Assembly (NCBI GenBank): GCA_902836505.1
Contig: CADFQU010000003.1
Coordinates: 1-18,225, forward strand
Length of the DNA stretch: 18,225 nt
Direction of reading: 5' to 3'
DNA from: Streptococcaceae bacterium
GTDB lineage: Bacteria; Bacillota; Bacilli; Lactobacillales; Streptococcaceae
Shown: positions 201 through 18,225 of the stretch, one piece after another
Layout: each line of letters begins with the position of its first letter
How positions within the stretch are numbered: the first letter of the stretch is position 1
Notes under the pieces: model-generated
Databases searched by the model: none
What the model was told of the DNA's origin: nothing
The model's input: only the letters and a program-made list of their open reading frames with translations
Translations under genes and position numbers: made by a program

Positions 201-301
201 GCACAAAAAGAGCAGCTAAATCGACTTTTATAAAGTTTGATTTAACTGCTGTAAGCTTCTATTTGGACAATATTTCAAATAAAGCGCACGACAAATTACT
301 T
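201..301 (-). ncRNA. Candidate ~100-nt small RNA or attenuated leader
   Basis: A promoter-like pair at 308-336 would start transcription near 301, and the intrinsic terminator at 205-250 would end it near 203. Both signals point left. No ORF with a ribosome binding site lies between them. This is what a stand-alone small RNA or a prematurely terminated leader looks like. I recognise no known family, and the call rests only on the two bounding signals. Confidence 0.25.
205..250 (-). terminator. Intrinsic terminator, minus strand
   Basis: A 12-bp stem (211-222 with 239-250, one G-U pair on the RNA) encloses a 16-nt loop that can form a further five-pair ACTTT/AAAGT inner helix. On the minus strand it is followed by CTTTTTG (T-run at 205-209). 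There is no T-run on the plus-strand side, so it acts leftward. It is 137 nt past the pbp1b stop and could end that transcript, but a promoter lies between them, so it may instead end a short separate RNA. Confidence 0.75.
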
Positions 302-5184: not shown

Positions 5185-5222
5185 AAAATACCCTCCATTT
5201 TTTAATCAATGGAGGGTATTTT
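5184..5222. terminator. Bidirectional terminator between rlmA and the response regulator
   Basis: A perfect 12-bp core stem (5188-5199 with 5208-5219, 8-nt loop) is flanked by A-runs on the left and T-runs on the right. It therefore works for rlmA rightward and for the two-component operon leftward. The response regulator stop is 13 nt away. Confidence 0.93.
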
Positions 5223-5234
5223 CATGTTTTCAGA

Positions 5235-6533
5235 TTAGTCACTTTCCTCTACGCCGATTTGTTGACGGTAGGCTTTGGGCGACTTGCCACACAACTTGCG
5301 GAAAACCTTGTAAAAGTAACCGACATTGCTGTAGCCGACCTCATAGCATATATCCTCAATGCTTTCAGTTGTGGATAAAAGCAACTGTTGGGCAGCTTTG
5401 ATCCGTTGTTTATTCAGGAGTTCCGCAAAGGTGGAATTGGTCTCACGTTTGATCAATTGTCCTAAATAAACGGGATTGATATAGAGATCCTTGCTGATAT
5501 CCTTGAGCGACAGTTCCTTCCGATAGTCACGTCCAATCACTTCCAATACGGTCGCCACATTATTGTTCATTCGATATTGAGAGAAGAAACTCTCCAATTG
5601 GTTCCGAACACAGGTAACAAGATCCTCGAAAGTCGTTGTCTCATGAACAGCTTTCACAACTTCTGCCAGGTCATCTCCGTGCAAGTGTTCAAATAAATGA
5701 AAGACATCCATAATGAACTGAATAAAGAGTTGCTTGGCTATTGCCACTTTTGGAGTATGGCTTTTCACGGTTTCTTCCAACCAGTTCAACTCTTCTAAAA
5801 TCTGTTGGATATTCCCCTGGATGATGACACGGTAGATGGGTTCGTAGTAATTAAAGACACCACCTTCTTCTTCCAAAGGGAGATCCCCATAAAATAGACT
5901 TCGTTCAACAAGCTCTTTAAATTGTTGAAAATGTTCCTTGTAAGGTGCTTGGAAACGACGCTGTAGGAAAGCCCCCTCATCCTCATCTGATAGATAGAGT
6001 TGAAGATTTTTTCCTAAGACTTGATAAGACGAACTGGCAAAGCCTTTTCTTTCCTTATCCACTCCAATCCAGAGTTGCTTTCTTCCTCGGATGGCCTGCT
6101 CAAACTCTTCTTCTGACCAATCTTCATGAAGGAGCCGATTGGCCGTCGCTTGATCTGGATTTTTCAGAGTTTGAGATAATTTTTCTAGGATATTTCCCAA
6201 CTCCACCTTATTGACAGGCTTTAACAGATAGTCTGCTACCCGGAGGTTTAAGGCTTTTTTTACATAAGCAAAATCTTGGTAACCTGACATAATGATATAG
6301 GCTGCATGGGGAAGAATGGACTGCATTTGATCAATCATTTCCAGACCAGTTTTTCCTGGCATATTGACATCCGTAATCACGACATCCACTGGATAATCTG
6401 AAACATAGGCCAAGGCCTGATCGGCATCCTCTGCTGTGTACACAACCTCCATGTCCCATTTTTCAAAGGGAATCAGTTTTTTCAACCCCTCAGTAATCAT
6501 ATATTCATCGTCAACCAATAAGACTTTATACAC
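5235..6533 (-). CDS. AraC-type response regulator, YesN family
   Basis: Cytoplasmic DNA-binding response regulator, 432 aa, the cognate partner of the kinase just upstream. The receiver domain spans residues 1-~120, with acidic pair Asp8/Asp9, phospho-acceptor Asp55 (VVITDVNMPG), Ser83 and Lys105 all present. A linker of about 200 residues follows, typical of this family and without clear catalytic motifs. The C-terminal ~100 residues hold two AraC helix-turn-helix units, with NPVYLGQLIKRET and a final IEDICYEVGYSNVGYFYKVF-type motif. The start is GTG at 6531-6533, with AGAGGA 7-8 nt upstream and 12 nt after the kinase stop. From memory it is most like pneumococcal RR07, a regulator of N-glycan genes. 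Its likely targets are the transporter and glycosidase genes on the right. Confidence 0.92.
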   Translation of the reverse strand: MYKVLLVDDEYMITEGLKKLIPFEKWDMEVVYTAEDADQALAYVSDYPVDVVITDVNMPGKTGLEMIDQMQSILPHAAYIIMSGYQDFAYVKKALNLRVADYLLKPVNKVELGNILEKLSQTLKNPDQATANRLLHEDWSEEEFEQAIRGRKQLWIGVDKERKGFASSSYQVLGKNLQLYLSDEDEGAFLQRRFQAPYKEHFQQFKELVERSLFYGDLPLEEEGGVFNYYEPIYRVIIQGNIQQILEELNWLEETVKSHTPKVAIAKQLFIQFIMDVFHLFEHLHGDDLAEVVKAVHETTTFEDLVTCVRNQLESFFSQYRMNNNVATVLEVIGRDYRKELSLKDISKDLYINPVYLGQLIKRETNSTFAELLNKQRIKAAQQLLLSTTESIEDICYEVGYSNVGYFYKVFRKLCGKSPKAYRQQIGVEESD

Positions 6534-6545
6534 GATTTTTTCCTC

Positions 6546-8192
6546 TTAAATGTCCTCGATGGTCATCGTATAGAGGACACCTTTTCCTTTTTCTGATGTA
6601 ATTTGAATGTGGTAACGATCCCCAAAGTAGAGAAGGAAACGCTCGTGGACATTGACAATCCCAATTGATTGCCGTCCCTTACTTTCTTCTACTTCTTCTC
6701 GAGGATCCCTATGACTCAATACTTGTTGGATCCGTTGCAACTGACTCGGTTCCATCCCTCTCCCATTGTCCTGGACACGAATTTCCACAGCTTCTCCAAC
6801 ATGACGGACTTTGATACTAATGACATTGTCCTTGCGTTTGCGATCAACTCCATGAACAAAGTAATTTTCCACTAGTGGCTGAAGAGTAAACTTTGGAATA
6901 ACCATCTCTTCTAGACCGGGTTCAATTTTAAAGCCATAGGCAATCGATTTTGGATAACGCACCATACAGAGATAGCTGTATTTTCTACAAAATTCCAACT
7001 CATTTTCTATAGTCGTCTCTTTCTCCTCTGAAATATTGTTTCGAAGGAGACTACTAAATTCGTAAATAATATCGGCTAATTCTTCTTGATCCTGCATGAC
7101 TGCATACATGCGAATAAACTCCATGGTATTATACATGAAATGCGGATTAATCTGCGCTTGTAAGGCCTTCATATTGGCATCTTTCTGGCTCAGTTGTAAC
7201 TGATAGATATCCCGAATAGACTTGTCCATATTGTCCAACATGGTATTGGTCATTTCTGCCACTAGGAGGAGCTCCTGCTCTTTGGTATCCACATTGATCC
7301 GTCGCTCAGAATCCCCCTGGCTGATGGCTTCCATGGTATCTACCAAATCCAAAACTTGTCTTTGGTAATTACGGAAAATTCGCTGGAGCAAGAGATACAA
7401 GACCAAGACCAGGATTAAGGCGACCGAAATCATCCAGGTAAAACTAAATAAGGCTGTTCGAACTGTGTAAGAGGTCGGAATCCCAACCCAGATTTGATAG
7501 CCGTAAGCAGTATCTCGCACAATCCACTGACTATGATCTTCTGGCTTGGTGTCTCCCCTGTGGTAAAAATCCTTCCCCAAGGGATTATAAATCTGGACAG
7601 CAACTGGAATCGTGTCTTGAATATTGTCGACAACAGAATCCAAAAGTGCTGGATTGATTTTAATGTAAGCCAGTCCAATATCTTCGCCAGTCGTAACATC
7701 CGTCAAGGAGACTGGAATCGCTTGTGAACTAGCCACGTATTGATCCGCTGGAACTTGTTGCCCTCCTTTTTTACTTTTACTGGAGACAAAGACCGTTGTA
7801 TAGTCATTTAACACCAAATCAATTTCATCCAGGGCGTCGTGTTCCAAGTAAAGAGTCTCAACATTGCGGTGTAGGGAGACTTGAATATAGTTGGAAAAAT
7901 AATTGTCCAAGCGCCAACTTTCATATTCAGAAGGTGTCATTGAAAAATACTTGTAAACACCTTCAAGTTTGGCTGGATTTTCAACCAGACTCTTCCCCCA
8001 TTGAGAAGATCTCTTATAAATATCCTCTACCTCAGCAGTCAAGCGAGAGGAAATCAACTGAGCGATTCGATCTGTCTCTGCCTTCTGATTATGCCAATAA
8101 ATCAAAGAAACCGTCACACCTAAGGTCGTGATAATCCCGACCATGATATAGGCATAGAATTTCAAAAGTGTTGCTAACCATATTTTTTTCAT
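6546..8192 (-). CDS. Sensor histidine kinase, YesM family (HisKA_7TM-independent, PF06580 type)
   Basis: Membrane sensor kinase of 548 aa. TM1 lies near residues 9-32, an extracellular sensing region of about 210 residues follows, then TM2 near 246-270, a HAMP linker, the His_kinase domain and an HATPase. The phosphorylated residue is His351 in QAQINPHFMYNTMEF. ATP-site motifs are VEN (441-443), DNGRGM (475-480) and a G2 box near 506-512 (GRQSIGI). The ATG is only 2 nt after the yesL stop and has no good ribosome binding site, so translation is probably coupled to yesL. The extracellular part resembles a Cache-type sensor in layout, but I cannot assign a ligand. Context suggests a glycan or a loaded binding protein. 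It most resembles pneumococcal HK07 by memory and gene order. Confidence 0.92.
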   Translation of the reverse strand: MKKIWLATLLKFYAYIMVGIITTLGVTVSLIYWHNQKAETDRIAQLISSRLTAEVEDIYKRSSQWGKSLVENPAKLEGVYKYFSMTPSEYESWRLDNYFSNYIQVSLHRNVETLYLEHDALDEIDLVLNDYTTVFVSSKSKKGGQQVPADQYVASSQAIPVSLTDVTTGEDIGLAYIKINPALLDSVVDNIQDTIPVAVQIYNPLGKDFYHRGDTKPEDHSQWIVRDTAYGYQIWVGIPTSYTVRTALFSFTWMISVALILVLVLYLLLQRIFRNYQRQVLDLVDTMEAISQGDSERRINVDTKEQELLLVAEMTNTMLDNMDKSIRDIYQLQLSQKDANMKALQAQINPHFMYNTMEFIRMYAVMQDQEELADIIYEFSSLLRNNISEEKETTIENELEFCRKYSYLCMVRYPKSIAYGFKIEPGLEEMVIPKFTLQPLVENYFVHGVDRKRKDNVISIKVRHVGEAVEIRVQDNGRGMEPSQLQRIQQVLSHRDPREEVEESKGRQSIGIVNVHERFLLYFGDRYHIQITSEKGKGVLYTMTIEDI

Positions 8193-8194
8193 AA

Positions 8195-8806
8195 TTAAGA
8201 AACCACTTTAGACCGAATTGTTTCATAGACGGGTTGAAAAATATCATTGACAAAGAAATGCCACAAGCCCAGTAAAACAAAGAAAAATAAAGCTGGAACG
8301 AAATGGGTGACAACCCCAAGAAGAAAGGTCCCCAAGAGAAACTTCGTCACTGCACGAATATCAAGAAAAGCACCAATAAAGCTCAACTTCAAGCTATTGA
8401 GATAGGACAACTCAAAATGGACCTGAAGCTTGAGGTAGACTGCAAAAGTCAGGGGAGCCACCAATAATAAAATTAAATTAACCAATAAGATAAAAATCTG
8501 AAATAGGGACAAGTGGGGCAATTGAATCATCAGATACATGCCATAAACAAGAATGGCTTCGATTAAAAAAAATGTATAGAAAACCTGGTTGGCACGACGG
8601 AAGTTCTCTTTATAGAGGGACCAAGCTTCAGACCAACCATATTGCTTGTAATCAGATCCATGTTCGGCATATAGACTCATAATCGTTGCGCTAGCTGGCC
8701 CAAATCCAAATAAGATTCCTCCACAAAAAGTTAGCGCCCAAAAAATTCCTGTTGCCAGCATGGCTAAGTAAACTCTTGTAAAAATAAATTCAATCATTCT
8801 TCCCAT
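8195..8806 (-). CDS. YesL-like membrane protein (DUF624)
   Basis: Integral membrane protein of 203 aa with about five hydrophobic segments and few charged residues between them. The N-terminal hydrophobic stretch carries FCGGILFGFGPASATIMSLY, resembling the conserved start of the DUF624/YesL family. No enzymatic motif is seen. YesL homologues usually sit beside YesMN-type two-component systems and sugar ABC transporters of the Lpl/Yte type, and their molecular role is not established. It is the first gene of the regulator operon. GGAG lies 7 nt before the ATG, and a promoter about 90 nt upstream. It could be an accessory subunit of the sensor kinase, which is only an inference. Confidence 0.85.
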   Translation of the reverse strand: MGRMIEFIFTRVYLAMLATGIFWALTFCGGILFGFGPASATIMSLYAEHGSDYKQYGWSEAWSLYKENFRRANQVFYTFFLIEAILVYGMYLMIQLPHLSLFQIFILLVNLILLLVAPLTFAVYLKLQVHFELSYLNSLKLSFIGAFLDIRAVTKFLLGTFLLGVVTHFVPALFFFVLLGLWHFFVNDIFQPVYETIRSKVVS

Positions 8807-8893
8807 AATTTGTCTCCATATTCATTTGCTGTAGAGGGGAACTTCAATCAAGTTAGTATAGTTTCCCTAGTACAAATGATGATTATATCCTAT

Positions 8894-8923
8894 ATTATAG
8901 CACATTTCCCCTGATGCTTTCGA
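8894..8923 (-). promoter_or_regulatory. Promoter of the YesL-kinase-regulator operon
   Basis: A perfect TATAAT (8894-8899) carries an extended TG one base upstream (TGCTATAAT). TCGAAA (8918-8923, 4 of 6 consensus) lies 18 nt away. A second TATAAT follows at 8882-8887, giving a possible alternative start. The leader is about 80 nt. No good cre site is seen here. Confidence 0.7.
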
Positions 8924-8940
8924 TTCTAAATCATCAACAG

Positions 8941-8976
8941 AAAAGACTTTGAAGTACGAAGACCTCAAAGTCTTTT
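8941..8976 (-). terminator. Terminator after the ABC transporter operon
   Basis: A perfect 12-bp stem (8941-8952 with 8965-8976) extends inward by about three more pairs, including a G-U, to leave a six-base CTTCGT loop on the RNA. It ends in TTTTCTG on the minus strand. It lies 26 nt past the binding-protein stop and 18 nt before the regulator-operon -35, so it insulates the two operons. Confidence 0.88.
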
Positions 8977-9002
8977 AATAGACTTAAGCAAGTATTGTTA
9001 GC

Positions 9003-10484
9003 TTATTTCTTAGCAGCAAGGTACTCATCGTATTGTTTTTGAATTTCATCCAATACTTTTTGGTAGGCACCTTCTGATTTCAATTTTTCAAGCATCTTAG
9101 GAATTTCAACTTCAGGATCTACTGTACCTGTATTGATGGCACTTGTGAATTGGTTCAAAGTGTTAGTAAGGGCAGTGATTTCTGATTTCACGTTTTCAGT
9201 GTTGAAGATGAATCCAAGTGCTGGAGATTCTTTTGCAGTTTCCAAGTCTTTCTTAGATTGTGCAATTTGCTCATCCGTTACGTTTTCGTTGATGTAAAGG
9301 ATCCAGTTGTTACCAGTGTTCCATCCAGACATGTGAGTATTTCCGTTGTAGCCATCCAAGACTTTCACACGGTTTTCTTTACCTTCAACTTTTTCCCAGT
9401 TCTTGCCTTCTGGACCATAAACAAGACCGTTCAAGAGTTCTGGGTTTGTATTCAAGAGGTTCAATACTTCCATTGCTTTTTCTTTGTTCTTAGAGTTGTT
9501 TGAGATGACAAAGTTTGCAACTTGAGTAGTGTTGTTCTTCTTGTAAAGTTGAGTGAATGGTTTGATCTCGATCTTACGGTTTGCTACACGAGTAAGCAAG
9601 CTGTTACCGTAGTCAGCAGGTCCTACTGTTTCTTCACGTACCAACCAAGTATCTTGAGAAAGGTCATATCCAGTGTCGCTTGTAGCTACGTCTTTTGGAA
9701 TGTAACCAGCTTCATAGTATTTATGAAGAGTCTTCAAGTTTTCAACATAACGTGGAATAGTGTAACGGTCAACGATCTTAGTGGTGTCACCTTGCAAATC
9801 GACAACGAATGGAAGTCCATCTACTGCAATGTAATCGAAGTCATCAGAAGGTCCACCATAGCTCTTGTTCATTGCGAATGGAACAACGTTTGGATCTTTT
9901 TCTTTGATCGCTTTCAAGACTGGTTCAAGAGAAGCATAGTCTTTTACGTTTGAGATGTCGATACCATATTTTTCAAGAAGTGGTCCGTTGAAGGCAAAGT
10001 TTTGTGAAGATGCAACGTTGGCTGCAACTGGAACAGCATAGATCTTGCCGTTTACAGTATTCCCTTTGATGTAAGCTGGGTCAAGTGCTTCATAGAGCTC
10101 TTTTCCTTCTTTCTTGTACAAGTCTGTCAAGTCAGCGTAAGCACCTTTTTGAGCGTTGATAACATAGTTGTTTGCGAAAGCAATATCGTAGTTTTCACCA
10201 GATGAAATGATAACGTTCATTTTCTTGTCATAGTCACCCCAACCAAGGTATTGGATGTCTAATTTAACACCAGCTTTTTCTTCGATGATCTTGTTAGCAT
10301 TTTCTAACAAGGTATCCAAGTTATCCGGTTTGTCACCGATTTGGTACATTTTGATAACTGTTTTACCGTCTTCACTCTTAGATGATTTTTGGTTATCACC
10401 TGTCAAGTTACCACAAGCAGCAAGAGTTGCTCCAAGTGCGAGAACGCTAGCAGAAGCTAAAGCATATTTTTTCCAATTTTTCAT
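9003..10484 (-). CDS. ABC transporter substrate-binding lipoprotein, NgtS-like
   Basis: Extracellular lipid-anchored sugar-binding protein, 493 aa from the chosen start. The signal peptide is MKNWKKYALASAS followed by a hydrophobic core, with lipobox LAAC and Cys24 as the modified residue. The body is a family-1 type binding fold, and the last ~140 residues resemble the DUF3502 domain found in Lpl-type proteins. An upstream in-frame start would add 12 residues, but the ATG at 10482-10484 has AAGGAG 8 nt upstream and gives a proper signal peptide. Length and gene order (permease, permease, binding protein) match pneumococcal NgtS, which binds N-glycan fragments, as I recall. The 63-nt gap before it and the strong ribosome binding site suit higher expression than the permeases. 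The ligand is inferred, not shown. Confidence 0.9.
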   Translation of the reverse strand: MKNWKKYALASASVLALGATLAACGNLTGDNQKSSKSEDGKTVIKMYQIGDKPDNLDTLLENANKIIEEKAGVKLDIQYLGWGDYDKKMNVIISSGENYDIAFANNYVINAQKGAYADLTDLYKKEGKELYEALDPAYIKGNTVNGKIYAVPVAANVASSQNFAFNGPLLEKYGIDISNVKDYASLEPVLKAIKEKDPNVVPFAMNKSYGGPSDDFDYIAVDGLPFVVDLQGDTTKIVDRYTIPRYVENLKTLHKYYEAGYIPKDVATSDTGYDLSQDTWLVREETVGPADYGNSLLTRVANRKIEIKPFTQLYKKNNTTQVANFVISNNSKNKEKAMEVLNLLNTNPELLNGLVYGPEGKNWEKVEGKENRVKVLDGYNGNTHMSGWNTGNNWILYINENVTDEQIAQSKKDLETAKESPALGFIFNTENVKSEITALTNTLNQFTSAINTGTVDPEVEIPKMLEKLKSEGAYQKVLDEIQKQYDEYLAAKK

Positions 10485-10547
10485 GAGAAAAACTCCTTTT
10501 TTATTTTTCTTTATTAACATTATGAAGGGTGGGCGAGAAAGGTTTGC

Positions 10548-11480
10548 TTACTCTTTCACACCACCGATGGTCAATCCTTTTACAAAGTAACGTTGGAAGA
10601 ACGGATAGAGGATAGCGATTGGAACTGTTGCCACCACCACCATGGCCATCCGTCCAGTTTCCTTAGGAAGGGATTGGACCGCACCAGCGATTTGACTAGA
10701 TGCACCGACTGATTTAGAAATGTAATCCATATTATTTTGGATTTGCATCAGCAAGTATTGAAGGGGATAGAGATTTTCACTCTTGATGTAGAGGAGGGCG
10801 TTGAACCAGTCATTCCAGAAGCCGAGGGCTGTGAAGAGACTGATGGTCGCAATTCCTGGGAGAGAAAGTGGCAAACAGATCTGGAAGAAGATCCGTGTTT
10901 CACTGGCTCCATCTATCCGAGCAGACTCAAGAATGGCTTCTGGGATTGTCCGTTTGAAGAAGGTCCGCATCAAGATGATGTTAAAAGGACTCAATAACAT
11001 TGGAATGATGAGGGCTCCAACGGTATCTCCTAAATGAAGCAACTGAGTAGTAACGATATATCCTGGTACCATCCCTGCACTAAAGAGCATGCTCAAGAGG
11101 GCAAAGACAGTAAAGAAGTTTCTGTACTTAAAGGTTCTACGAGAGATCGCGTAGGCGTAGGTCGTTGTAATAAAGACATTACATGCTGTCCCTACAATCG
11201 TTACAAACAGGGTAATGAAGAGGGCTTGAAGAATCTTATCCTTAAATTGAACAAGGAAAAGATAGCCATCTGCACCAAACTTAGCAGGCCAAAATTGGAA
11301 GCCGTGAATTGCCAAACTTTGTTCATCTGTCAAGGAAATCATGACAACGAAGATGAAGGGCAAGATACAGGATAGCGCAACCAAGCCGACGATGCTACTA
11401 AAGAAGATGTCTGCTTTCTTACTGAAGGAGTGGATCCCAACATTATCAACTTTTTCTTTTTTAATTTTTGATTTTGCCAT
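10548..11480 (-). CDS. ABC transporter permease, LplC-type
   Basis: Membrane permease of the carbohydrate uptake family, 310 aa. After a charged N-terminus, TM1 spans about 24-49 and further hydrophobic segments follow at about 84-109, 121-150, 151-172 and beyond. The EAA loop that contacts the ATPase begins at Glu181 (EAILESARIDGASETR) and ends at Pro204. A 13-residue upstream extension is possible in frame, but AAAGGAGG stands 5-6 nt before the ATG at 11478-11480, so that start is chosen. The gene is 13 nt downstream of the partner permease and they would pair as a heterodimer. It resembles pneumococcal SP_0091-type proteins from memory. Confidence 0.92.
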   Translation of the reverse strand: MAKSKIKKEKVDNVGIHSFSKKADIFFSSIVGLVALSCILPFIFVVMISLTDEQSLAIHGFQFWPAKFGADGYLFLVQFKDKILQALFITLFVTIVGTACNVFITTTYAYAISRRTFKYRNFFTVFALLSMLFSAGMVPGYIVTTQLLHLGDTVGALIIPMLLSPFNIILMRTFFKRTIPEAILESARIDGASETRIFFQICLPLSLPGIATISLFTALGFWNDWFNALLYIKSENLYPLQYLLMQIQNNMDYISKSVGASSQIAGAVQSLPKETGRMAMVVVATVPIAILYPFFQRYFVKGLTIGGVKE

Positions 11481-11493
11481 GGTATCCTCCTTT

Positions 11494-12423
11494 CTAAAAG
11501 AGCGCTGCATTCTTATCAATCCGACGTGCTACAATATTAGAAAGTAAAACGAGAATCAATCCGACAACTGATTGGTAAAGACCAGCCGCTGCGGCCATCG
11601 CAATATCCCCTGATTTAGCAAGTCCGTTGTAGACATAGACATCAATTACGTTTGTCACACTATAAAGAGCACCTGAGTTATGTGGGATTTGGTAGAACAA
11701 TCCAAAGTCAGCACGGAAGATATTTCCGATGGCAAGGATGGTCAAAACCGTAATCAAGGAAGCCAACTGAGGAATGGTAATGTGGCGAATTCGCTGCCAC
11801 TTAGATGCTCCATCCACTGTTGCTGCTTCGTAGAAGGTTGGATCAATTCCCATGATGGTTGCATAGTACATAACACTGCTATAACCAAAGCCTTTCCAGA
11901 TTCCTAAGAAGAGGAGAAGCGCTGGCCAAATGGCAACCTCTGTATAGAAGTTGATTCCTTTCATCCCAAGTGATGTTAAGATATGGTTAATCAAGCCTTT
12001 ATCAACGTTTAAGAAGGCATCTGTAAAGAAGCTGATGATAACCCATGACAAGAAATAGGGGAACAACATTGATGTTTGAAACACTTTAACCAACCGTTTG
12101 GAACGCATTTCACTAAAGATGATGGCAATCCCAACGGAAACAATCAAGCCCAAGAAAATAAAGGCTAGGTTGTAAAGGACGGTATTTCTTGTAATGATAT
12201 AAGCATCTTTAGAACTAAAGAGGAATTTGAAGTTATCAAATCCTACCCACTTACTCTTCATTACACTATCAATAAATCCCTCTCCGGTGATATGATAGTC
12301 TTTAAATGCGACAACGTTTCCCAAAACAGGTATGTAGAAGAATAAAATCAACCACGCTGCACCTGGTAAAACCATCAAGAAGAAAATAAGATTTTCTCTC
12401 AAGGTCTTAACAAACTTTTTCAT
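11494..12423 (-). CDS. ABC transporter permease, LplB-type
   Basis: First gene of the transporter operon, 309 aa. Hydrophobic segments lie near residues 11-40, 79-104, 114-134, 162-185, 221-235 and 272-298. The EAA loop is EAATVDGASKWQRIRHI starting at Glu199, with Pro218 at its end. It forms the membrane channel with the next gene. The ribosome binding site GGGGGGAG lies 4-5 nt before the ATG. The promoter and cre site are just upstream. No ATP-binding subunit follows anywhere in the operon, which is usual for this family in streptococci, where a shared MsmK/RafK-type ATPase serves several importers. Confidence 0.92.
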   Translation of the reverse strand: MKKFVKTLRENLIFFLMVLPGAAWLILFFYIPVLGNVVAFKDYHITGEGFIDSVMKSKWVGFDNFKFLFSSKDAYIITRNTVLYNLAFIFLGLIVSVGIAIIFSEMRSKRLVKVFQTSMLFPYFLSWVIISFFTDAFLNVDKGLINHILTSLGMKGINFYTEVAIWPALLLFLGIWKGFGYSSVMYYATIMGIDPTFYEAATVDGASKWQRIRHITIPQLASLITVLTILAIGNIFRADFGLFYQIPHNSGALYSVTNVIDVYVYNGLAKSGDIAMAAAAGLYQSVVGLILVLLSNIVARRIDKNAALF

Positions 12424-12453
12424 CTGACTCCCCCCTTTGTCATTTTATTTTTT

Positions 12454-12467
12454 TGGTAACGTTTACA
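12454..12467 (-). promoter_or_regulatory. CcpA cre site over the transporter start site
   Basis: On the minus strand TGTAAACGTTACCA matches TGWAANCGNTNWCA at 13 of 14 positions. It begins seven bases downstream of the TATAAT, so it covers the expected transcription start and first 13 bases. Bound CcpA would block initiation or early elongation. This suggests the transporter is shut off when a preferred sugar is present. Confidence 0.8.
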
Positions 12468-12473
12468 TTTTTT

Positions 12474-12502
12474 ATTATAAAACTCTATGAAAACTTTTTC
12501 AA
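12474..12502 (-). promoter_or_regulatory. Promoter of the ABC transporter operon
   Basis: TTGAAA (12497-12502, 5 of 6) and a perfect TATAAT (12474-12479) are 17 nt apart. It is the best promoter in the window by consensus. The leader is about 44 nt. It follows the GH20 terminator, so the transporter is a separate transcription unit from the glycosidase genes. Confidence 0.85.
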
Positions 12503-12531
12503 ACTCCTAATTATAGAAAAAATTCTACAAA
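12489..12531 (-). promoter_or_regulatory. Possible activator repeats upstream of the transporter promoter
   Basis: Two similar A/T-rich blocks stand 28 nt apart on the minus strand: TTTGTAGAATTTTTTC (12516-12531) and TTTGAAAAAGTTTTC (12489-12503), the second overlapping the -35. AraC-type activators often use direct repeats placed this way. The first block also holds a TAGAA/TTCTA inverted repeat. The sequence is A/T-rich, so the match could be chance. Confidence 0.2.
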
Positions 12532-12557
12532 TTTATGACATAGCCTTAAAAATGGAG

Positions 12558-12597
12558 AAAAAAGGAGAAGAAATGTCTCCATCGGACATCTTTCTCC
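12558..12597 (-). terminator. Terminator after the GH20 gene
   Basis: An imperfect hairpin pairs GGAGAA with TTCTCC and then ATGTC with GACAT around a small internal loop (12585-12597 with 12564-12577). It is followed by TTTTTT at 12558-12563 on the minus strand. It starts 39 nt after the GH20 stop and lies upstream of the transporter promoter. Confidence 0.75.
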
Positions 12598-12635
12598 TCT
12601 TTCAACAGCATTTTCTTTAAAGACACCCTTTTGAA

Positions 12636-14516
12636 TTAGGTCGTATAAATAGTCGAAGCTGTTGCAATGGTATGCCACTGGTTAGCCGTTGTGGCTGCGA
12701 AGTCCTTATCTCCGTAGAAATCATTAAATGGCAAGATCTCTACTTCTAGTTCGTCGATACGAGAGATTTCGCCTGCTAGGTAGTTTTCAATACGGCTTTC
12801 TGCTCGCTTAATCCGTTGCAAGAGCCCACCCATACGGATATCTACTGTATCCAAACCAAAGACCTTGTTTTCTTTCAACCATTGCTGGCTAAAGAGTTTG
12901 TGGAAGGTTTCAATCTGGCTTCTGAGTTTTGGCAATTCTTCTCTGGCGATTTGTTGCAAACTCTCTTTATCATCTGCTTGATAAGCTTCCCGAATGCGGC
13001 GTCCTACATCTACTTTACTACTTAAAATAGCATTCAACTGAGCCTGAGTCTCAAAGAGATAAGCGTAGACTCCAGCTTTTTCTTTAATGTCAGACAGAAT
13101 CTCAGCTGCCTTAGCAAAGTGGGGTTTGTCCTGTTCAGGAGTCATGTGCTTGTCAAGGATTGGGCAAAGAACATCTTGATAAAAGACATAGCGGTTAGGA
13201 TTGATGCCACTGAGATTGTCTGGTAGATATGGTAAGAGGTTGGCCAAATCCAGCTGCATAAAGTCCTCAGCTGATAGACCTGTATTGGTCTTTAAGTGAG
13301 CAGACAAGCGTTCTAAATCATTACGATAGCTGAGTTCTGCCCAGATTTGCAAGCTCGGTAAAATAGAGAACTGGGCTGTTTCACCACCATTATCTCCCCA
13401 ACCAGTCACAATGACTTCTTTGATTTGATTGGCACGGCAGGCTTTATTAGCTTCGACTGCGATGAGACGACTGAAATGGTTATGAGGCGTGAAACCAATC
13501 CACTTCCAAGCACCACCTGCAAAGGCGATATCCTGGCTAATCTTGTGGTGGTTACGGAAGTTCCGGTTGTATTTTTCCTCACTATCTTGGTAATAATCCC
13601 AGTAAACCAAAGTCACACGGTCTTTGAGACGGTCTAGATAAACACGTGTTTCCTCTGGAATCTCCACATCGCGGTCATACTGACCATCTGCTGACATGAG
13701 CTTGAAGAACATATCGCTCCACATCTGGCAGTGGAAACCATACTTGTCTGCGATATCCAGCACGCGCTCCAAGTGTTGGCACATAAGGAGACTACGATCA
13801 ACCACACCGTTTAGGATGAGGTAGCGTCCCAAACCAACTAGGTGAGCTTCGTCCATTCCGATATTGACCTTGCGAGTCTGTAGCTTAGATAGCGTCGCAA
13901 ACATGCCATCAATCAGGTCATAAACCTTTTCTTCGCCAATGAGGAGAATGTCCTCAACATCACGAAGTTGCTGGACTTCTTTGACACTCCATTTGACAAA
14001 GGCTGACAAGTGGGCCAAGGTCTGGATACATGGTACAAAAGTCATATCAAACTGCTGGGCGTAGGCTTCAATTTCCTGTAACTCTTCAGCAGAATAAGCT
14101 CCACGGAAATAGCCAAAGTAAGGTTGTCCCTCGATTTGATAGGTATCTTCCATATAGAGTTCAAAAGTTGAGTAGCCCATGAGAGCTAAGACCTCAATCA
14201 TCTGCTTGGCAGAGGTGACATTCATTACAGCATTACGGGAACAATCCGCCATGTATGCTAAATCTTCATAAGCCGCTTGTTCTTCAATCTCTACCTTATC
14301 ACCTTCTACCAAAGCTGTTACTAGCACTGACAAGGCACGGTAGAGTTGGTGAGGTTTGTCATAAGTCAATTGATACTTTCCGCCCTCACCCTTGATAGAA
14401 ATAGAAGATTGATCAGACTGGGTGACTGCCACTTCTACATTGGGTAGAGAAATGTGCTTTTTTAATGCTTCGATAGATTGGGCTTGTTTGGGACTAAGTC
14501 CTGTAAAAATTACCAT
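12636..14516 (-). CDS. Cytoplasmic GH20 beta-N-acetylhexosaminidase, GH20C-like
   Basis: Exo-beta-hexosaminidase of 626 aa, expected to remove terminal beta-linked GlcNAc or GalNAc from imported glycans. An N-terminal GH20b-type domain (about 1-85) precedes the catalytic barrel. The GH20 acid/base pair Asp222-Glu223 stands in NIGMDEAHL, and WSDMF and [10 protein letters not shown] are typical later barrel segments. There is no signal peptide, LPXTG or repeat, so it is cytoplasmic and differs from secreted StrH. Length matches pneumococcal GH20C as I recall. The ATG overlaps the ROK stop (ATGGTAA), with AGGAGG 7 nt upstream, so translation is coupled. It is the last gene before a terminator. 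Exact linkage preference cannot be read from sequence. Confidence 0.9.
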
Positions 14517-15379
14517 TGGTTTTCCTCCTGTAACCAGTTGACAAGGGCACCGTAGAGATTGGCATCTGCCTGATAGGTGCAGGCTTGGATGACTGGCGCA
14601 ATTGTATACTCTTCATATCTTTCGACAAAAGCATCTACTGCTTTTTGCACCCCTTTGATAAAATCTGGATTCTGACTGATAGAGCCTCCTAGGCTAATGA
14701 CATCTGGGTCGATCAGATACTGAATATTGAGTAGTCCTTGAGCAAGATTGCGGTTCATGCGCTCAATGGCTTCTTGACAAAGGACATTGTTTGCTGCAGC
14801 CTCTTGGTAAATCTTACGACCGTCCCAATCGGATTGACCAGATTTTTCATTCACATAGCGAACCATACTTCCAGTTGACGCCAGTTGCGACCAGTTATTG
14901 AGTTTCTCAGTTGGTGCAAGAGTCGTCATGTAGCCAAACTCACCACCCAAGCCATGGCGACCACGGTGTAGTTTCCCATTGATCATCATAGCCCCGCCAA
15001 TCCCTGTGCCAATGACAACACAGGCTGCATTTTCAATCTCGGGATGAGCTAGCAGTTCACTAAGTCCAACACAGTTGGCATCATTTTCTAGATGGACAGG
15101 TAGCTGGTGATGAGCAAGGGCCTCATACCATGAAAAACCATGGATATAAGGAATGGCACTAATCCCCTCAATCACTCCTGTTTCTTGATTGACCGCACCT
15201 GGCACACTCATAGCAATCCCACGATAGTCCTGTTCTGACAAGCGTTGGTCCAACCAAGCCAACAAATCTTCTAGAGTTTCTGGAGTTGGGGTGCTGGTCT
15301 TATCTAAAATCTTTCCATCAGGAGTTAGACTAGCAAACTTAATGCCAGTCCCTCCGATATCAATTGTTGCAATGGTCAT
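14510..15379 (-). CDS. ROK-family sugar kinase
   Basis: Cytoplasmic kinase of 289 aa that would phosphorylate a hexose released by neighbouring glycosidases. The ATP-binding phosphate loop DIGGTG is at residues 7-12, the catalytic Asp100 in LENDAN, and GTGIGG at 124-129. The usual ROK zinc motif CxCGxxGCxE is absent; the region after [13 protein letters not shown] carries no such cysteines. No helix-turn-helix is present, so it is a kinase rather than a ROK repressor. A TTG five codons upstream could extend it, but AGGTG lies 6 nt before the ATG at 15377-15379, which I chose. Substrate could be mannose, GlcNAc or glucose; context favours mannose or an N-acetylhexosamine, with low certainty. 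The stop overlaps the GH20 start. Confidence 0.88.
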
Positions 15380-15392
15380 TGCTTTCACCTGC

Positions 15393-15435
15393 AAAAAGGA
15401 GCGAATCAGCAGTTGGTTCTTACTTTTTCGCTCCT
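15393..15435 (-). terminator. Internal terminator or attenuator between GH38 and ROK
   Basis: AGGAGCGAA pairs perfectly with TTCGCTCCT (15427-15435 with 15397-15405). The stem can extend outward by four more pairs, two of them G-U. A 21-nt loop separates the arms, and TTTTT follows on the minus strand. It lies between the GH38 stop and the ROK ribosome binding site, inside what otherwise looks like one operon. It would lower ROK and GH20 output relative to GH38 and GH125. Confidence 0.65.
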
Positions 15436-15463
15436 CCTTTCTGTTTATGTTTACTTTTTGAAA

Positions 15464-18109
15464 TTAAATTTCTTCTTTTTGAATGAATTCTGTACGAATT
15501 TCCTGTGGTGCCAATAGTCCTGAATGAACTGGGTATGGGCGTTCCAGCAAGTCAATAATGGCTTGTTGTTTTTCAGACACGCGAACATTTTCTTGACTCA
15601 TGTTGTAGTAACGAAGGACATAACCTTCTTCATTCTCAGCCACCTTAAAGGCTGTTGGGCAGACTTGTGGCAAGCTAAATGCCGTATGGTTAAAGAGACT
15701 ACCCGTTGCCGCAACACTCCCCTCTTGTTTTGCAACTTGAAGAGCTGTAAATGGTACCTGGAAGGCTTTGGCACGACGGAAAGCTGAGAAGCGTTCGCCT
15801 GCTTGATGACATTCTACTGCAAATTCAACTTCGATATCACGCAAGCACTGAGCTTCCGGCGTTGGGAAGTAACCCCAGTCACCAAGTTCGCCTGAAGCAC
15901 GAAGAAGGGTTACAGCCATGGTGTCGTCTCCAAGAATTTCATACTCGTGCAATCCTTTATTGGATACGGTCACTCCTTTGACATCATCATACAAGCTGAC
16001 AAAAGCTTGTTGGTGTTGTGGATTTTCAGGATTTTCCCAAGAAGCTGCTGGTTTATTTGGTCTTGTCACAACTTCATAGATGCTTTCAGAATCATTGCTT
16101 GGACGAGTGTTATGAGTTTTTACTAAGAGACGAATGCGGTGGTCTTTGGCTGTATTAGTAAAGCGAGTCTTGAAGCGAATCTGTGGATTGTCCACAAAGA
16201 CAGTCATTTCTGTTTCAAGAGGAATGGTTGTCAACTCTTCTGAACGACCTGCATCTCGTTTCATGAACTCGATGATACCTCTTTGTTCAGCATCCAATTT
16301 TTCATCTGCACTGACCGGAATCGTCAAGTCATGTTTGAGCAATACCTTAGCATAGCGAGCATTGTTTTCTAAGACTTCGTATCCTTTCAATTGAGCATAG
16401 ATTGGCTCAGTACCTTTTGGTTGGAAGTAAATGTATTCATTACCAATATCCCCGCGGTCTTCGAAGCTAAGGAAGTCCTCATAAGCCTCATTGGTCGTCT
16501 TGTCGTAAAGGGTCAAGCAATCATCAATACTGAGGGTTACGAACGGCGTATCGAGAACCCCATTTTGGTAAATACCATCATGATGGGAAGCTTTTCCTTC
16601 CAGAAGCTGGAAGGTGGTCCAAGAAAGAGGTGATAGGTGAACTGGAACCGTCACGCGCACTTGACGCGCGATATAAGGTTGACGGAATTTATCCTTAGGC
16701 AAGGTATAGCCAAAACTTGCCCCCAAGTCTTCAATATCTGCTTCTACAAGATGACCGTCTAAATCTTCTACATGATAGTCTGGCAAGGTCAAAGCGGCCA
16801 TTTTCTTGAAGCCTTCTGTCGGATGCAACTCCTTAAATGGACAAACCGCTACATCGACGATCGTGCTGACGGTATCCACCTTATCATGCAAGCCTGTATT
16901 GATGACCGTAAAGAGATGCTCACTCTGCGCTTTTTGAGTTGCTAGTTTGCCCTTCCATTCATTCAGAAGGTTGGTCTTGACAAAGTTTCCGACTTGATTG
17001 ACCTTGGCAAAACGAACTTCCATTTCACGGTGAACATCATCCACACTACATCCACAAATACTATCGTGTGGTGCATTTTGCAAGAGGGTCTTCCAAGCAT
17101 AGGTCAATTGATCCTTGTGGTTGTGCCCACCAGTGATAATGGTCAAAGGTTCCACAACCTGCTCTAACAAGTTGCTGTTTTCTTGGAAGGCTTGTTTGAG
17201 GTAAACGCGTGAAGAAGAAGTATTCGCCAGCGTATACCAACCATCGGTTTCCTGACTAGTCAATTCTCCTGTAACCGTTGATAATTGCTCAGGAAGTGCA
17301 CTTTCCACTGCTTGCACATATTCGTCAAAGGAGCTATGAATAAAGGTCACGTCAGGGAAGAGTTCGTTGGCCACGCGAATGGCTTCACTAATATTTCTCT
17401 GTACAGGCTGGTGGTCACAGCCGTTCATCATCAACCATTGGTTGGTCGATGCATAGTCACGGACGTCTGCTAATTTTTGCTTCCAGAAAGTCAAAGCCTC
17501 ATCTTTATCCACTGGAATTTCATTCCCGTTACTGTACCAGTTTGCAAAGAGAATGCCGAGTACACGGCTACCATCAGCCCCCTGCCAATACATCTCAGAA
17601 AATTGAGAGGTAAATTGCTCATCTTCGAGGACTTGGTTGTCAAATCCGATTGGCTTGACACCGCGACCAAAGGCTGCTACGTGAATGCCTGATTTTTGAA
17701 GAATCTGAGGAGCTTGCCCCATATTTCCAAAAGTATCTGGGAAGTAGCCAATCTGCGTAGATTTGCCCCATTTGGCACATTCAGCTTGTCCAATCAAGGT
17801 ATTGCGGACGTTCGCTTCACTAGAAATCAAGTAGTCATCCTGCAAGATGTAGAAAGGACCAATCTTGAGCTTGCCTTCGTCGATATAACGCTGCACCTTG
17901 TCACGGTTTTCAGGGCGAATTTCTAAATAGTCATCAAGGACAATGGTTTGTCCATCTAGGTGGAAGCTCTTGAACTCAGGATCGTTTTCAAAAAGATCAA
18001 AGAGATCATCAAAGAGTTCCACCAATTGCATACGGTGACTTTCAAAAGGTAGATACCACTCACGATCCCAGTGACTGTGAGAGATGATATGTACAACAAC
18101 ATTTTCCAT
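15464..18109 (-). CDS. GH38 alpha-mannosidase
   Basis: Zinc-dependent retaining alpha-mannosidase of 881 aa, cytoplasmic (no signal peptide), acting on mannose of imported N-glycans. The N-terminal catalytic domain begins HIISHSHWDREW, with zinc ligands His13 and Asp15. The nucleophile is expected at Asp125 in GYFPDTFGNMGQ, and His348-Asp349 (NAPHDSICGCS) supplies the final zinc ligand. GCDHQPVQ near 230-237 also fits streptococcal GH38. The C-terminal half forms the beta-sandwich part of the family. Length is normal. It resembles SpGH38 from S. pyogenes, which cleaves alpha-1,3-mannosidic linkages, as I recall. The ATG at 18109 has GAGG 8-9 nt upstream. It lies 76 nt downstream of the GH125 end, consistent with an operon. 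Confidence 0.93.
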   Translation of the reverse strand: MENVVVHIISHSHWDREWYLPFESHRMQLVELFDDLFDLFENDPEFKSFHLDGQTIVLDDYLEIRPENRDKVQRYIDEGKLKIGPFYILQDDYLISSEANVRNTLIGQAECAKWGKSTQIGYFPDTFGNMGQAPQILQKSGIHVAAFGRGVKPIGFDNQVLEDEQFTSQFSEMYWQGADGSRVLGILFANWYSNGNEIPVDKDEALTFWKQKLADVRDYASTNQWLMMNGCDHQPVQRNISEAIRVANELFPDVTFIHSSFDEYVQAVESALPEQLSTVTGELTSQETDGWYTLANTSSSRVYLKQAFQENSNLLEQVVEPLTIITGGHNHKDQLTYAWKTLLQNAPHDSICGCSVDDVHREMEVRFAKVNQVGNFVKTNLLNEWKGKLATQKAQSEHLFTVINTGLHDKVDTVSTIVDVAVCPFKELHPTEGFKKMAALTLPDYHVEDLDGHLVEADIEDLGASFGYTLPKDKFRQPYIARQVRVTVPVHLSPLSWTTFQLLEGKASHHDGIYQNGVLDTPFVTLSIDDCLTLYDKTTNEAYEDFLSFEDRGDIGNEYIYFQPKGTEPIYAQLKGYEVLENNARYAKVLLKHDLTIPVSADEKLDAEQRGIIEFMKRDAGRSEELTTIPLETEMTVFVDNPQIRFKTRFTNTAKDHRIRLLVKTHNTRPSNDSESIYEVVTRPNKPAASWENPENPQHQQAFVSLYDDVKGVTVSNKGLHEYEILGDDTMAVTLLRASGELGDWGYFPTPEAQCLRDIEVEFAVECHQAGERFSAFRRAKAFQVPFTALQVAKQEGSVAATGSLFNHTAFSLPQVCPTAFKVAENEEGYVLRYYNMSQENVRVSEKQQAIIDLLERPYPVHSGLLAPQEIRTEFIQKEEI

Positions 18110-18185
18110 GAGTAAAACCTCATTCTAACTTAAATTTAAAAATATATTTGTGATTCTTTCCTAGAATCTGTCGAGCGATCGCTCA
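18110..18185 (-). other. Gap between GH125 and GH38 with two small palindromes
   Basis: A six-pair stem GATTCT/AGAATC (18152-18157 with 18163-18168) has a 5-nt loop. A separate perfect 12-nt palindrome GAGCGATCGCTC is at 18173-18184, two bases from the GH125 stop. Neither has a clean T-run, so I do not call a terminator. No clear promoter is seen, which suggests read-through from GH125. Confidence 0.35.
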
Positions 18186-18225
18186 TTAGCGAATATCCAG
18201 GTAATCCAAGACCAATTCGCAAAAC
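18186..18225 (-). CDS. C-terminus of a GH125 exo-alpha-1,6-mannosidase (partial)
   Basis: Twelve codons and a stop are visible, reading FCELVLDYLDIR, and the gene runs off the right edge. The short peptide resembles the end of GH125 enzymes as I remember it, and in S. pneumoniae GH125 is the neighbour of this glycosidase cluster. GH125 removes alpha-1,6-linked mannose. The identification is tentative because so little is present. The alternative frame through this region also stays open for a while but gives no recognisable product. Confidence 0.5.
   Translation of the reverse strand, partial: FCELVLDYLDIR

What the first reader, a model, noticed from the sequence alone, without database searches (positions are those of the whole stretch)
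5235..18225. Two-component system, N-glycan importer and glycosidases joined in one locus
Regulator, sensor, YesL, permeases, binding protein, GH20, ROK, GH38 and probable GH125 lie contiguously on one strand. As I recall, pneumococcal TCS07, NgtS-P1-P2 and the GH20C/ROK/GH38/GH125 cluster are at three separate sites, linked only by experiment. Here the linkage is physical. It supports a functional unit for host N-glycan use and makes the kinase's signal easier to guess. The direction of change (fusion here or dispersal in pneumococcus) is open.
Basis: partly seen in the sequence, partly recalled or inferred. Interest (0 to 1): 0.75.

Follow-up and report, generated by a model that had tools for sequence, protein, structure and literature searches.

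The report
Joined N-glycan use locus in Streptococcus
A mouth streptococcus keeps, side by side on its chromosome, the sensor, importer and sugar-cutting enzymes used to eat the sugar chains of host proteins; this arrangement was reported in related species in 2020, but the sequence also shows which order is older and what looks like the regulator's switch in front of two of the operons.

Summary
On the minus strand, 5235-18225 carries response regulator, histidine kinase, YesL, NgtS, NgtP2, NgtP1, GH20C, ROK, GH38 and the last 12 codons of GH125: orthologues of pneumococcal TCS07, NgtS-P1-P2 and the carbohydrate-processing locus (CPL). The claimed novelty is not: Andreassen et al. 2020 (PMC7075642) report the three co-localised in six other species. 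The window (S. australis/rubneri group) is a further member of a known kind.

New here, by computation only. (1) Direction: the joined order is older. Of 69 Streptococcus genomes with all three modules, 23 have them within 6 kb; in 40 the kinase is over 30 kb away or on another contig. A pneumococcus-like genome has all three apart; its CPL/Ngt split is an origin-centred inversion. (2) The gh125-gh38-rok-gh20 operon was swapped with an S. infantis-like allele. (3) A probable operator: two CTATAATTTGT half-sites 21 bp apart, ending 26 bp before the -10, at ngtP1 and gh125, less clearly at bglA3, not at yesL, strH or endoD. Binding is untested; a published gel-shift at gh125 was negative.

The parts
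5185..5222 (.). terminator-like hairpin between rlmA and the regulator gene (listed on + by the scan)
   Evidence: 15-pair stem; the scan as a whole found no more than chance (9 against 10.9)
5235..6533 (-). response regulator (RR07/YesN type: receiver plus AraC-type HTH, long linker); Asp55 present by my count on the translation
   Evidence: 63% to L083 (pneumococcus-like), 72-73% to S. parasanguinis-group loci
6546..8192 (-). sensor histidine kinase (HK07/YesM type); sensor part residues about 30-240 with a predicted Cache-type fold; His351 in an invariant column
8195..8806 (-). YesL-like DUF624 membrane protein (first gene of the TCS operon, as in L083)
8807..9002 (-). intergenic region before yesL; promoter-like match, no 21-bp repeat operator
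   Evidence: 0 of 13 yesL upstreams; 0 of 48
9003..10520 (-). NgtS, N-glycan solute-binding lipoprotein; ligand tryptophans W81 and W386 (pneumococcal numbering) conserved
10548..11519 (-). NgtP2 permease
11494..12423 (-). NgtP1 permease
12474..12479 (-). -10 element TATAAT of the ngtP1 promoter (-35-like TTGAAA begins at 12502)
12506..12537 (-). candidate RR operator: half-sites 12537-12527 (CATAAATTTGT) and 12516-12506 (CTATAATTAGG), 21-bp period, ending 26 bp before the -10
12636..14516 (-). GH20C exo-beta-N-acetylglucosaminidase (GcnA type)
   Evidence: 1309 bits to 5a69-series GH20C chains
14510..15394 (-). ROK-family putative sugar kinase
15464..18109 (-). GH38 alpha-mannosidase
   Evidence: 867 bits to 2wyh; 935 bits to 5kbp
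18186..18225 (-). 3' end of GH125 alpha-1,6-mannosidase (12 codons and stop); the rest lies beyond the window

Best explanation
This is the TCS07-regulated N-glycan foraging locus in its older, joined form. Inferred working: secreted enzymes (EndoD, encoded elsewhere; GH92 next door) release Man3-5GlcNAc from host glycoproteins; NgtS binds it and NgtP1-P2 import it (no ATPase gene in the locus); GH125 and GH38 remove mannose; GH20C and the ROK protein deal with remaining sugars. The kinase senses a glycan-derived signal with an extracellular Cache-type domain and activates the AraC-type regulator. The regulator then binds a two-half-site direct repeat (CTATAATTTGT, 21-bp period), placed 26 bp before the -10, at the ngtP1 and gh125 promoters; the yesL-hk-rr operon has no such site. 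Shown here: gene content, order, orthology, conserved ligand residues, the repeat and its fixed geometry. Inferred: sugar fluxes, binding, activation, the signal. History (inferred from order and trees): the joined order is older; the two-component system moved away in the mitis group; an origin-centred inversion later split CPL from Ngt in the pneumococcal lineage; in the australis/parasanguinis clade the gh125-gh20 operon was replaced by a mitis-group allele.
For: Domains. NgtS 831 bits to pneumococcal NgtS 5swa; W81 and W386 kept in 19 of 19 loci aligned. GH20C 1309 bits to GH20C chains of the 5a69 series (that these are pneumococcal is recalled). Order in kin: 26 of 80 fetched loci hold the two-component system within the 10 kb flank of NgtS, 23 of them with GH38-ROK-GH20 too (my count). 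Of 147 Streptococcus genomes, 69 have all three modules at the thresholds used: 23 within 6 kb, 40 with NgtS-GH20 within 6 kb but HK over 30 kb away (26) or on another contig (14), 1 with all three far apart on one contig; the other 5 are given in the full report. Outgroup: 5 of 7 genomes with a divergent NgtS (51-53%) and no GH20C have HK within 2 kb of NgtS. Inversion: pneumococcus-like G039 has NgtP1 beside rpsD and GH20 beside an SPFH-like gene, while G002 has GH20|NgtP1 joined and these two genes 1.8 kb apart; breakpoint midpoint 492.6 kb against dnaA at 496 kb, dnaA strand flipped relative to NgtS. Operator: TAnnnT exactly 26 bp after the second half-site in 25 of 29 upstream regions; in 2.37 Mb of held loci, hits at 91 of 102 ngtP1 and 60 of 70 gh125 upstreams, 1 of 93 rok, 0 of 48 yesL, 1 other, reversed control 0. 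Published: RR07 overexpression induces ngt and CPL but not hk07 (PMC7075642 section 6).
Against: No expression or binding data for this organism. A published gel-shift did not detect RR07 on the strH and gh125 promoters (PMC9603416, passages). Two strongly induced RR07 targets do not show the operator in the 200 bp tested: strH (168 of 300 shuffles reach its score) and endoD (200 of 300 in G039, 191 of 300 in G001). The operator was defined on these same promoters, and the loci are related, so counts are not independent. 4 of 29 upstreams lack the 26-bp spacing, among them S. cristatus gh125. 2 of the 7 outgroup genomes have HK on another contig (G107, G121), and HK identity in the 7 is only 33-47%. 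14 of the 40 'separated' genomes are drafts with HK on another contig, so distance is unknown. EndoD was found in 23 of 30 genomes searched and in 3 of 4 of the window's group (absent in G140). The window's own assembly is not held.
Confidence: 0.85

Rival explanations
1. The joined order is the newer one: the modules were scattered and came together in the australis/parasanguinis line.
For: The gh125-gh20 operon of the window's group has a different history from its neighbours: it nests with S. infantis-type genomes, so part of the locus was put together by recombination. Two outgroup genomes have HK and NgtS on different contigs.
Against: S. gordonii, S. cristatus, S. suis, Streptococcus sp. 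121 and pyogenic-type genomes also keep HK beside NgtS. The swap replaced an operon at a place where relatives already have the same operon.
Confidence: 0.07
2. The high similarity of gh125-gh20 to S. infantis reflects strong purifying selection, not transfer.
For: NgtS also keeps high fourfold-site identity (64-66%) to S. infantis without transfer; it is presumably highly expressed (inference).
Against: Fourfold-site identity of the window's GH38/ROK/GH20 to two S. infantis-type records is 67-75% against 29-43% for NgtP1/NgtP2; identity drops near both ends of the operon; a mitis-group clade is rejected for CPL (AU p 0.00016) but present for NGT and TCS, and an australis/parasanguinis+infantis clade is rejected for NGT (5e-46) and TCS (2e-76) (LG+G4, GH125 left out, groups named after a first tree was seen).
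Confidence: 0.08
3. The kinase does not sense glycan itself; NgtS loaded with Man3-5GlcNAc docks on its Cache domain (a LuxP-LuxQ-like or GanP-GanS-like arrangement).
Against: The sensor domain is only 49-50% identical between the window and S. parasanguinis-group loci while NgtS is 93-94% identical; no interface was tested.
Confidence: 0.3
4. The 21-bp repeat is the site of another regulator, or a feature of a shared promoter type, not the site of the adjacent response regulator.
For: Negative gel-shift in print; no support at strH and endoD.
Against: It occurs at promoters of genes that RR07 induces (ngt, gh125 operon, less clearly bglA3) and not at hk07's operon, which RR07 does not induce; 21 bp is two helical turns, as expected for an AraC-type dimer on direct repeats (recalled).
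Confidence: 0.25

Closest known systems
Joined CPL-ABC-TCS07 loci of S. parasanguinis, gordonii, cristatus, intermedius, suis and iniae (Andreassen 2020, PMC7075642)
   Same: Same modules in one place; the same gene order was seen here in S. parasanguinis-group, S. cristatus, S. gordonii and S. suis loci.
   Different: The S. australis/rubneri group is not in that list; YesL, HK and RR here are 63-73% identical to S. parasanguinis-group loci while the CPL proteins are 93-97% identical (GH125 taken from L003).
S. pneumoniae TCS07, NgtS-P1-P2 and CPL (Robb 2017, PMC5215778; Andreassen 2020)
   Same: Orthologous proteins; candidate operator at ngtP1 and gh125 of G039.
   Different: Three sites in pneumococcus; GH29 belongs to the pneumococcal CPL but was not among the ORFs looked at in the australis-group locus L114, 1-6500.
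S. suis endoSS region (Ma 2020, PMC7281376)
   Same: More than 20 kb with regulator, transporter, GH20, ROK, GH38, GH125 and GH92 (passages).
   Different: The S. suis region includes an endoglycosidase; in three genomes of the window's group GH85 lies on another contig than NgtS.
GanS-type kinases of Bacillota
   Different: Other sugar (recalled); sensor halves not compared with GanS.

Membership tests
TCS07 (HK07/RR07) | three-gene operon: yesL-like gene, HK with His_kinase domain, RR with receiver and AraC HTH | tested here: met
   same trio in pneumococcus-like L083; three-gene operon spr0152-hk07-rr07 named in PMC9603416 (passage)
TCS07 (HK07/RR07) | one clear relative per genome, orthologous to the pneumococcal pair | tested here: met
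   77 of 147 genomes match HK at E<=1e-60, one match each; trees. Locus tags of L083 were not read from an annotation
TCS07 (HK07/RR07) | activates ngt and CPL genes on N-glycoprotein | not testable with these tools
   published for pneumococcus
NgtS-P1-P2 (ABCNG) | SBP homologous to NgtS with W81 and W386 | tested here: met
NgtS-P1-P2 (ABCNG) | binds Man1-5GlcNAc | not testable with these tools
   no binding assay
CPL | GH20C, ROK, GH38, GH125 in a row with GH92 beside them | tested here: met
   for the window; for L003 and L114, where GH125 and GH92 are whole or nearly so
CPL | GH29 in the cluster | tested here: inconclusive
   not among the 5 ORFs of at least 150 aa in L114 1-6500; the published paper notes gh29 missing in some species
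Cache sensor domain | fold match of the extracellular part | tested here: met

The most novel reading that the evidence does not exclude
The regulator of N-glycan foraging in streptococci acts through one operator geometry (two CTATAATTTGT half-sites, 21-bp period, 26 bp before the -10) kept from pyogenic-type to mitis-group species, so that whole coding operons can be exchanged between species, and the modules can scatter, while staying wired to resident regulators whose kinases are only about 50% identical.
Probability: 0.5. Interest if true: 0.6.

Novelty: new member of a known kind. Interest (0 to 1): 0.42.

Why it matters
The locus itself confirms published work. The added value is a bench test: the TCS07 authors found no consensus in 2020 and proposed CTWWWWWWAG in 2024, and a 2022 gel-shift failed. 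A fixed two-half-site geometry at two promoters in many species gives probes to test, and would explain why the published motif, seen in 69 of 92 ngtP1 upstreams, is missing from 68 of 68 gh125 upstreams. The order of events also shows the pneumococcal arrangement to be the derived exception.

Tried and rejected
Rejected: chance clustering (the order recurs). Rejected: fusion as the newer state (outgroups), with the reservation that 2 of 7 divergent genomes have HK and NgtS on different contigs.

Led nowhere or went against the reading: a strict double half-site pattern with up to 3 mismatches hit only 2 of 8 genomes, once each, both just upstream of ngtP1 by position (G118, G091). In the window the published motif has 4 matches where 1.67 are expected (14 of 200 shuffles reach 4). 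strH of G039 has one perfect half-site, but further upstream than the 200 bp later tested, and endoD a TTTGT pair 22 bp apart; neither fits the geometry. bglA3 fits more weakly: at most 6 of 300 shuffles reach the score in 5 of 6 upstreams, 104 of 300 in S. gordonii (spacing 25-27 allowed there, 14 upstreams tested in all). The gene downstream of NgtS that scores well in G039 shows the strict pair in only 4 of 35 upstreams of 130 bp. The GanS/GanP literature search listed no paper on that system. The fold search on the whole kinase said little on the sensor half, so that half was folded alone.

Literature searches: (listings; seven of ten allowed). The library lacks most subscription papers; figures and supplements were not read, so Fig. 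8 of PMC11034029 and Fig. 8 of PMC7075642 were not seen, and the 2024 motif may be broader there than in the text.

Rows left out: trees used 28 and 17 sets chosen by me from the 44; GH125 was left out of the CPL trees because the window lacks it; the AU groups were named after the tree. The operator set was 29 upstreams chosen by me; one search then used all 124 sources held at that time.
Full report
What is there. The window runs pbp1b(-), tyrS(+), rlmA(+), then on the minus strand the regulator, kinase, YesL, NgtS, NgtP2, NgtP1, GH20C, ROK and GH38 genes, and the last 12 codons of GH125 (the names pbp1b and tyrS are by look of the sequence). Among the 80 loci fetched, the window is nearest to S. 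australis, S. rubneri and S. xiaochunlingii type records, 92.7-93.8% over the best aligned piece; the assembly itself is not held. Beyond the window, kin loci show the whole GH125 and a divergent GH92.

What the proteins are. NgtS scores 831 bits against the pneumococcal NgtS structure 5swa and keeps the two ligand tryptophans described by Robb 2017 (section 10) in 19 of 19 loci aligned. GH20C scores 1309 bits against the 5a69 series and 1063 against the 2epk group (that these are S. pneumoniae GH20C and S. gordonii GcnA is recalled). GH38 scores 867-935 bits against 2wyh, 3lvt and 5kbp.

What is known. Andreassen 2020 (sections 6, 10 and 11 read) shows that RR07 overexpression induces strH, ngtP1-P2-S, endoD, the CPL, bglA3, SPD_0092 and others, not hk07, and states that CPL, ABC transporter and TCS07 co-localise in six other species. 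Robb 2017 (sections 6 and 10 read) linked CPL and transporter by position in 8 of 10 loci. Ma 2020 (passages) describes the S. suis cluster.

Direction of change. In 147 Streptococcus genomes, NgtS, HK and GH20C were located by protein search (HK and GH20C at E<=1e-60). 69 carry all three. 23 have both distances under 6 kb. One has HK close and GH20 on another contig (G011). 26 have NgtS-GH20 under 6 kb but HK over 30 kb away, 14 have HK on another contig. Two have GH20 6-30 kb from NgtS (G066, G085), two have the three on three contigs (G080, G106), and G039 has all three apart on one contig. Of 7 genomes with a divergent NgtS (51-53%) and no GH20C at the threshold, 5 have HK within 2 kb of NgtS and 2 have it on another contig; HK there is 33-47% identical. 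Joined loci thus occur in S. suis, S. gordonii, S. cristatus, the australis/parasanguinis clade and pyogenic-type genomes. Among genomes with all three modules, the separated two-component system is seen in mitis-group type genomes and DD10 (NgtS identity 77-87% types). In G118, G100, G050 and G087 HK lies on the other strand, over 260 kb away by contig coordinate; in the oralis/mitis type it is 34-62 kb away on the same strand.

The pneumococcal split. In G039 the segment from beside NgtP1 to beside GH20 is inverted. Outside junction genes are rpsD (beside NgtP1) and an SPFH-like gene (beside GH20); both names are by look of the sequence. In G002 (S. mitis 321A, by identical coordinates and contig length with L063) GH20 and NgtP1 are joined, and the two outside genes are neighbours, 1.8 kb apart. 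At nucleotide level both G039 junctions map to the two intact junctions of G002 and of G074. Of 22 genomes searched 22 had rpsD and 9 had the SPFH-like gene or a piece of it; the two lie within 16 kb of each other in 5 (G002, G066, G074, G085, G095) and far apart in 4 (G039, G050, G100, G138), so the neighbourhood is a feature of S. mitis-type genomes, not of the genus. dnaA in G039 is at 496 kb, the breakpoint midpoint at 492.6 kb, and dnaA is flipped relative to NgtS. Origin-symmetric 'X-alignment' of S. mitis B6 with pneumococcus is published (PMC2828477, passages); G095 has the length given there for B6.

A swapped operon. The window and S. australis G1 share gh125-gh38-rok-gh20 with two S. 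infantis-type records at 86-92% nucleotide identity (S. parasanguinis S32 with S. infantis ATCC 700779: 83-90%), while NgtP1/NgtP2 are at 74-76% and GH92 at 54-57% (one record, DD18, 69%). The identity falls within the first 100 bp or so of gh125 and at the end of gh20. DD10 behaves the other way: closer in Ngt (84-87% protein) than in CPL (78-80%). AU tests reject a mitis-group clade for CPL (p 0.00016) and reject an australis/parasanguinis+infantis clade for NGT and TCS. pbp1b is 63-66% identical to the mitis-group type genomes tested and 78-80% to the two S. parasanguinis-type ones. The coding block seems to have been replaced between resident promoters; since intergenic DNA diverges fast, the exact ends are uncertain.

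A candidate operator. The upstream regions of ngtP1 and gh125 share a direct repeat with half-site CTATAATTTGT and 21-bp period. ATTTGT pairs (one mismatch allowed) at 21 bp occur in 9 of 17 ngtP1, 8 of 12 gh125, 0 of 13 yesL and 0 of 7 pbp1b upstreams; shuffles reach at most 3 (the spacing was picked). With the best repeat fixed by half-site score alone, a TAnnnT lies exactly 26 bp further on in 25 of 29 (two more at 25; next commonest offset 6 of 29). A regular expression for the full geometry gives 153 hits in 2.37 Mb: 91 at ngtP1 (of 102 upstreams held), 60 at gh125 (of 70), 1 at rok (of 93) and 1 elsewhere, in L115 some 2 kb upstream of an NgtS and so probably its ngtP1; reversed control 0. 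Many of these loci are near-copies of each other. Letting the spacing vary from 25 to 27 gives 161 hits, control 1; among the added ones 5 lie before a gene a little downstream of NgtS and 1 before a bglA3-like GH1 gene (L099). In G039 that first gene is the second after NgtS (one 328-aa ORF between), so by counting from SPD_0090 it would be SPD_0092, which is on the published induced list at 2.8 log2; the tag was not read from an annotation, and only 4 of 35 upstreams of this gene show the strict pair. In a shuffle test (300 each, 14 upstreams, spacing 25-27) G039 ngtP1, gh125 and this gene were reached by 0; bglA3 by 0-6 in 5 of 6 and by 104 in S. gordonii; strH 168, endoD 200 (G039) and 191 (G001), yesL 263, rpsD 264. 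The published motif CTWWWWWWAG occurs in the window at 12507-12516, that is inside the second half-site; it is in 69 of 92 ngtP1 upstreams and 0 of 68 gh125 upstreams. Against: a published gel-shift was negative at gh125.

Verdict. A correct observation of a known kind of locus in a further species group; its stated novelty was in print in 2020. The direction of change is answered from gene order, the locus is a mosaic, and a testable operator is proposed.

Noticed in passing
window 238-296 (-): Lacto-rpoB RNA leader (Rfam RF01709, 66.9 bits).
   Followed up: no
L003:16177-18759 and S. parasanguinis-group loci L007-L013, L015, L053: Between rlmA and tyrS lie 2.6 kb in S. rubneri and 1.4-3.6 kb in parasanguinis-group loci, against under 0.1 kb in the window; contents not read.
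   Followed up: no
L042:15358-16485 and L077:16154-17281: A sugar-ABC ATPase-like gene (msmK type, by look of the sequence) near the two-component system in S. cristatus and S. suis, 79% alike; the window's locus has no ATPase gene.
   Followed up: no
L020 (S. oralis DD21): GH38 and ROK matches are each split into two pieces with extra DNA between.
   Followed up: no
G077 NgtS, G131 NgtS, G014 NgtS, G067 GH20, G129 HK: The searches report in-frame stops inside these matches; some may be terminal stops read through, others may mean decay of the locus.
   Followed up: no
window 6546-8192, sensor half: The sensor domain is 49-50% identical between the window and parasanguinis-group loci although the importer is 88-94% and CPL 93-97% identical; why the sensor differs so much is unexplained.
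   Followed up: partly
G050 and G100 (infantis type): The SPFH-like gene lies about 5-6 kb from HK in these genomes, a hint at how the two-component system was moved in that line.
   Followed up: no
L114:540-2039: A zinc-binding protein gene (ZnuA plus ZinT domains) lies beyond GH92.
   Followed up: no
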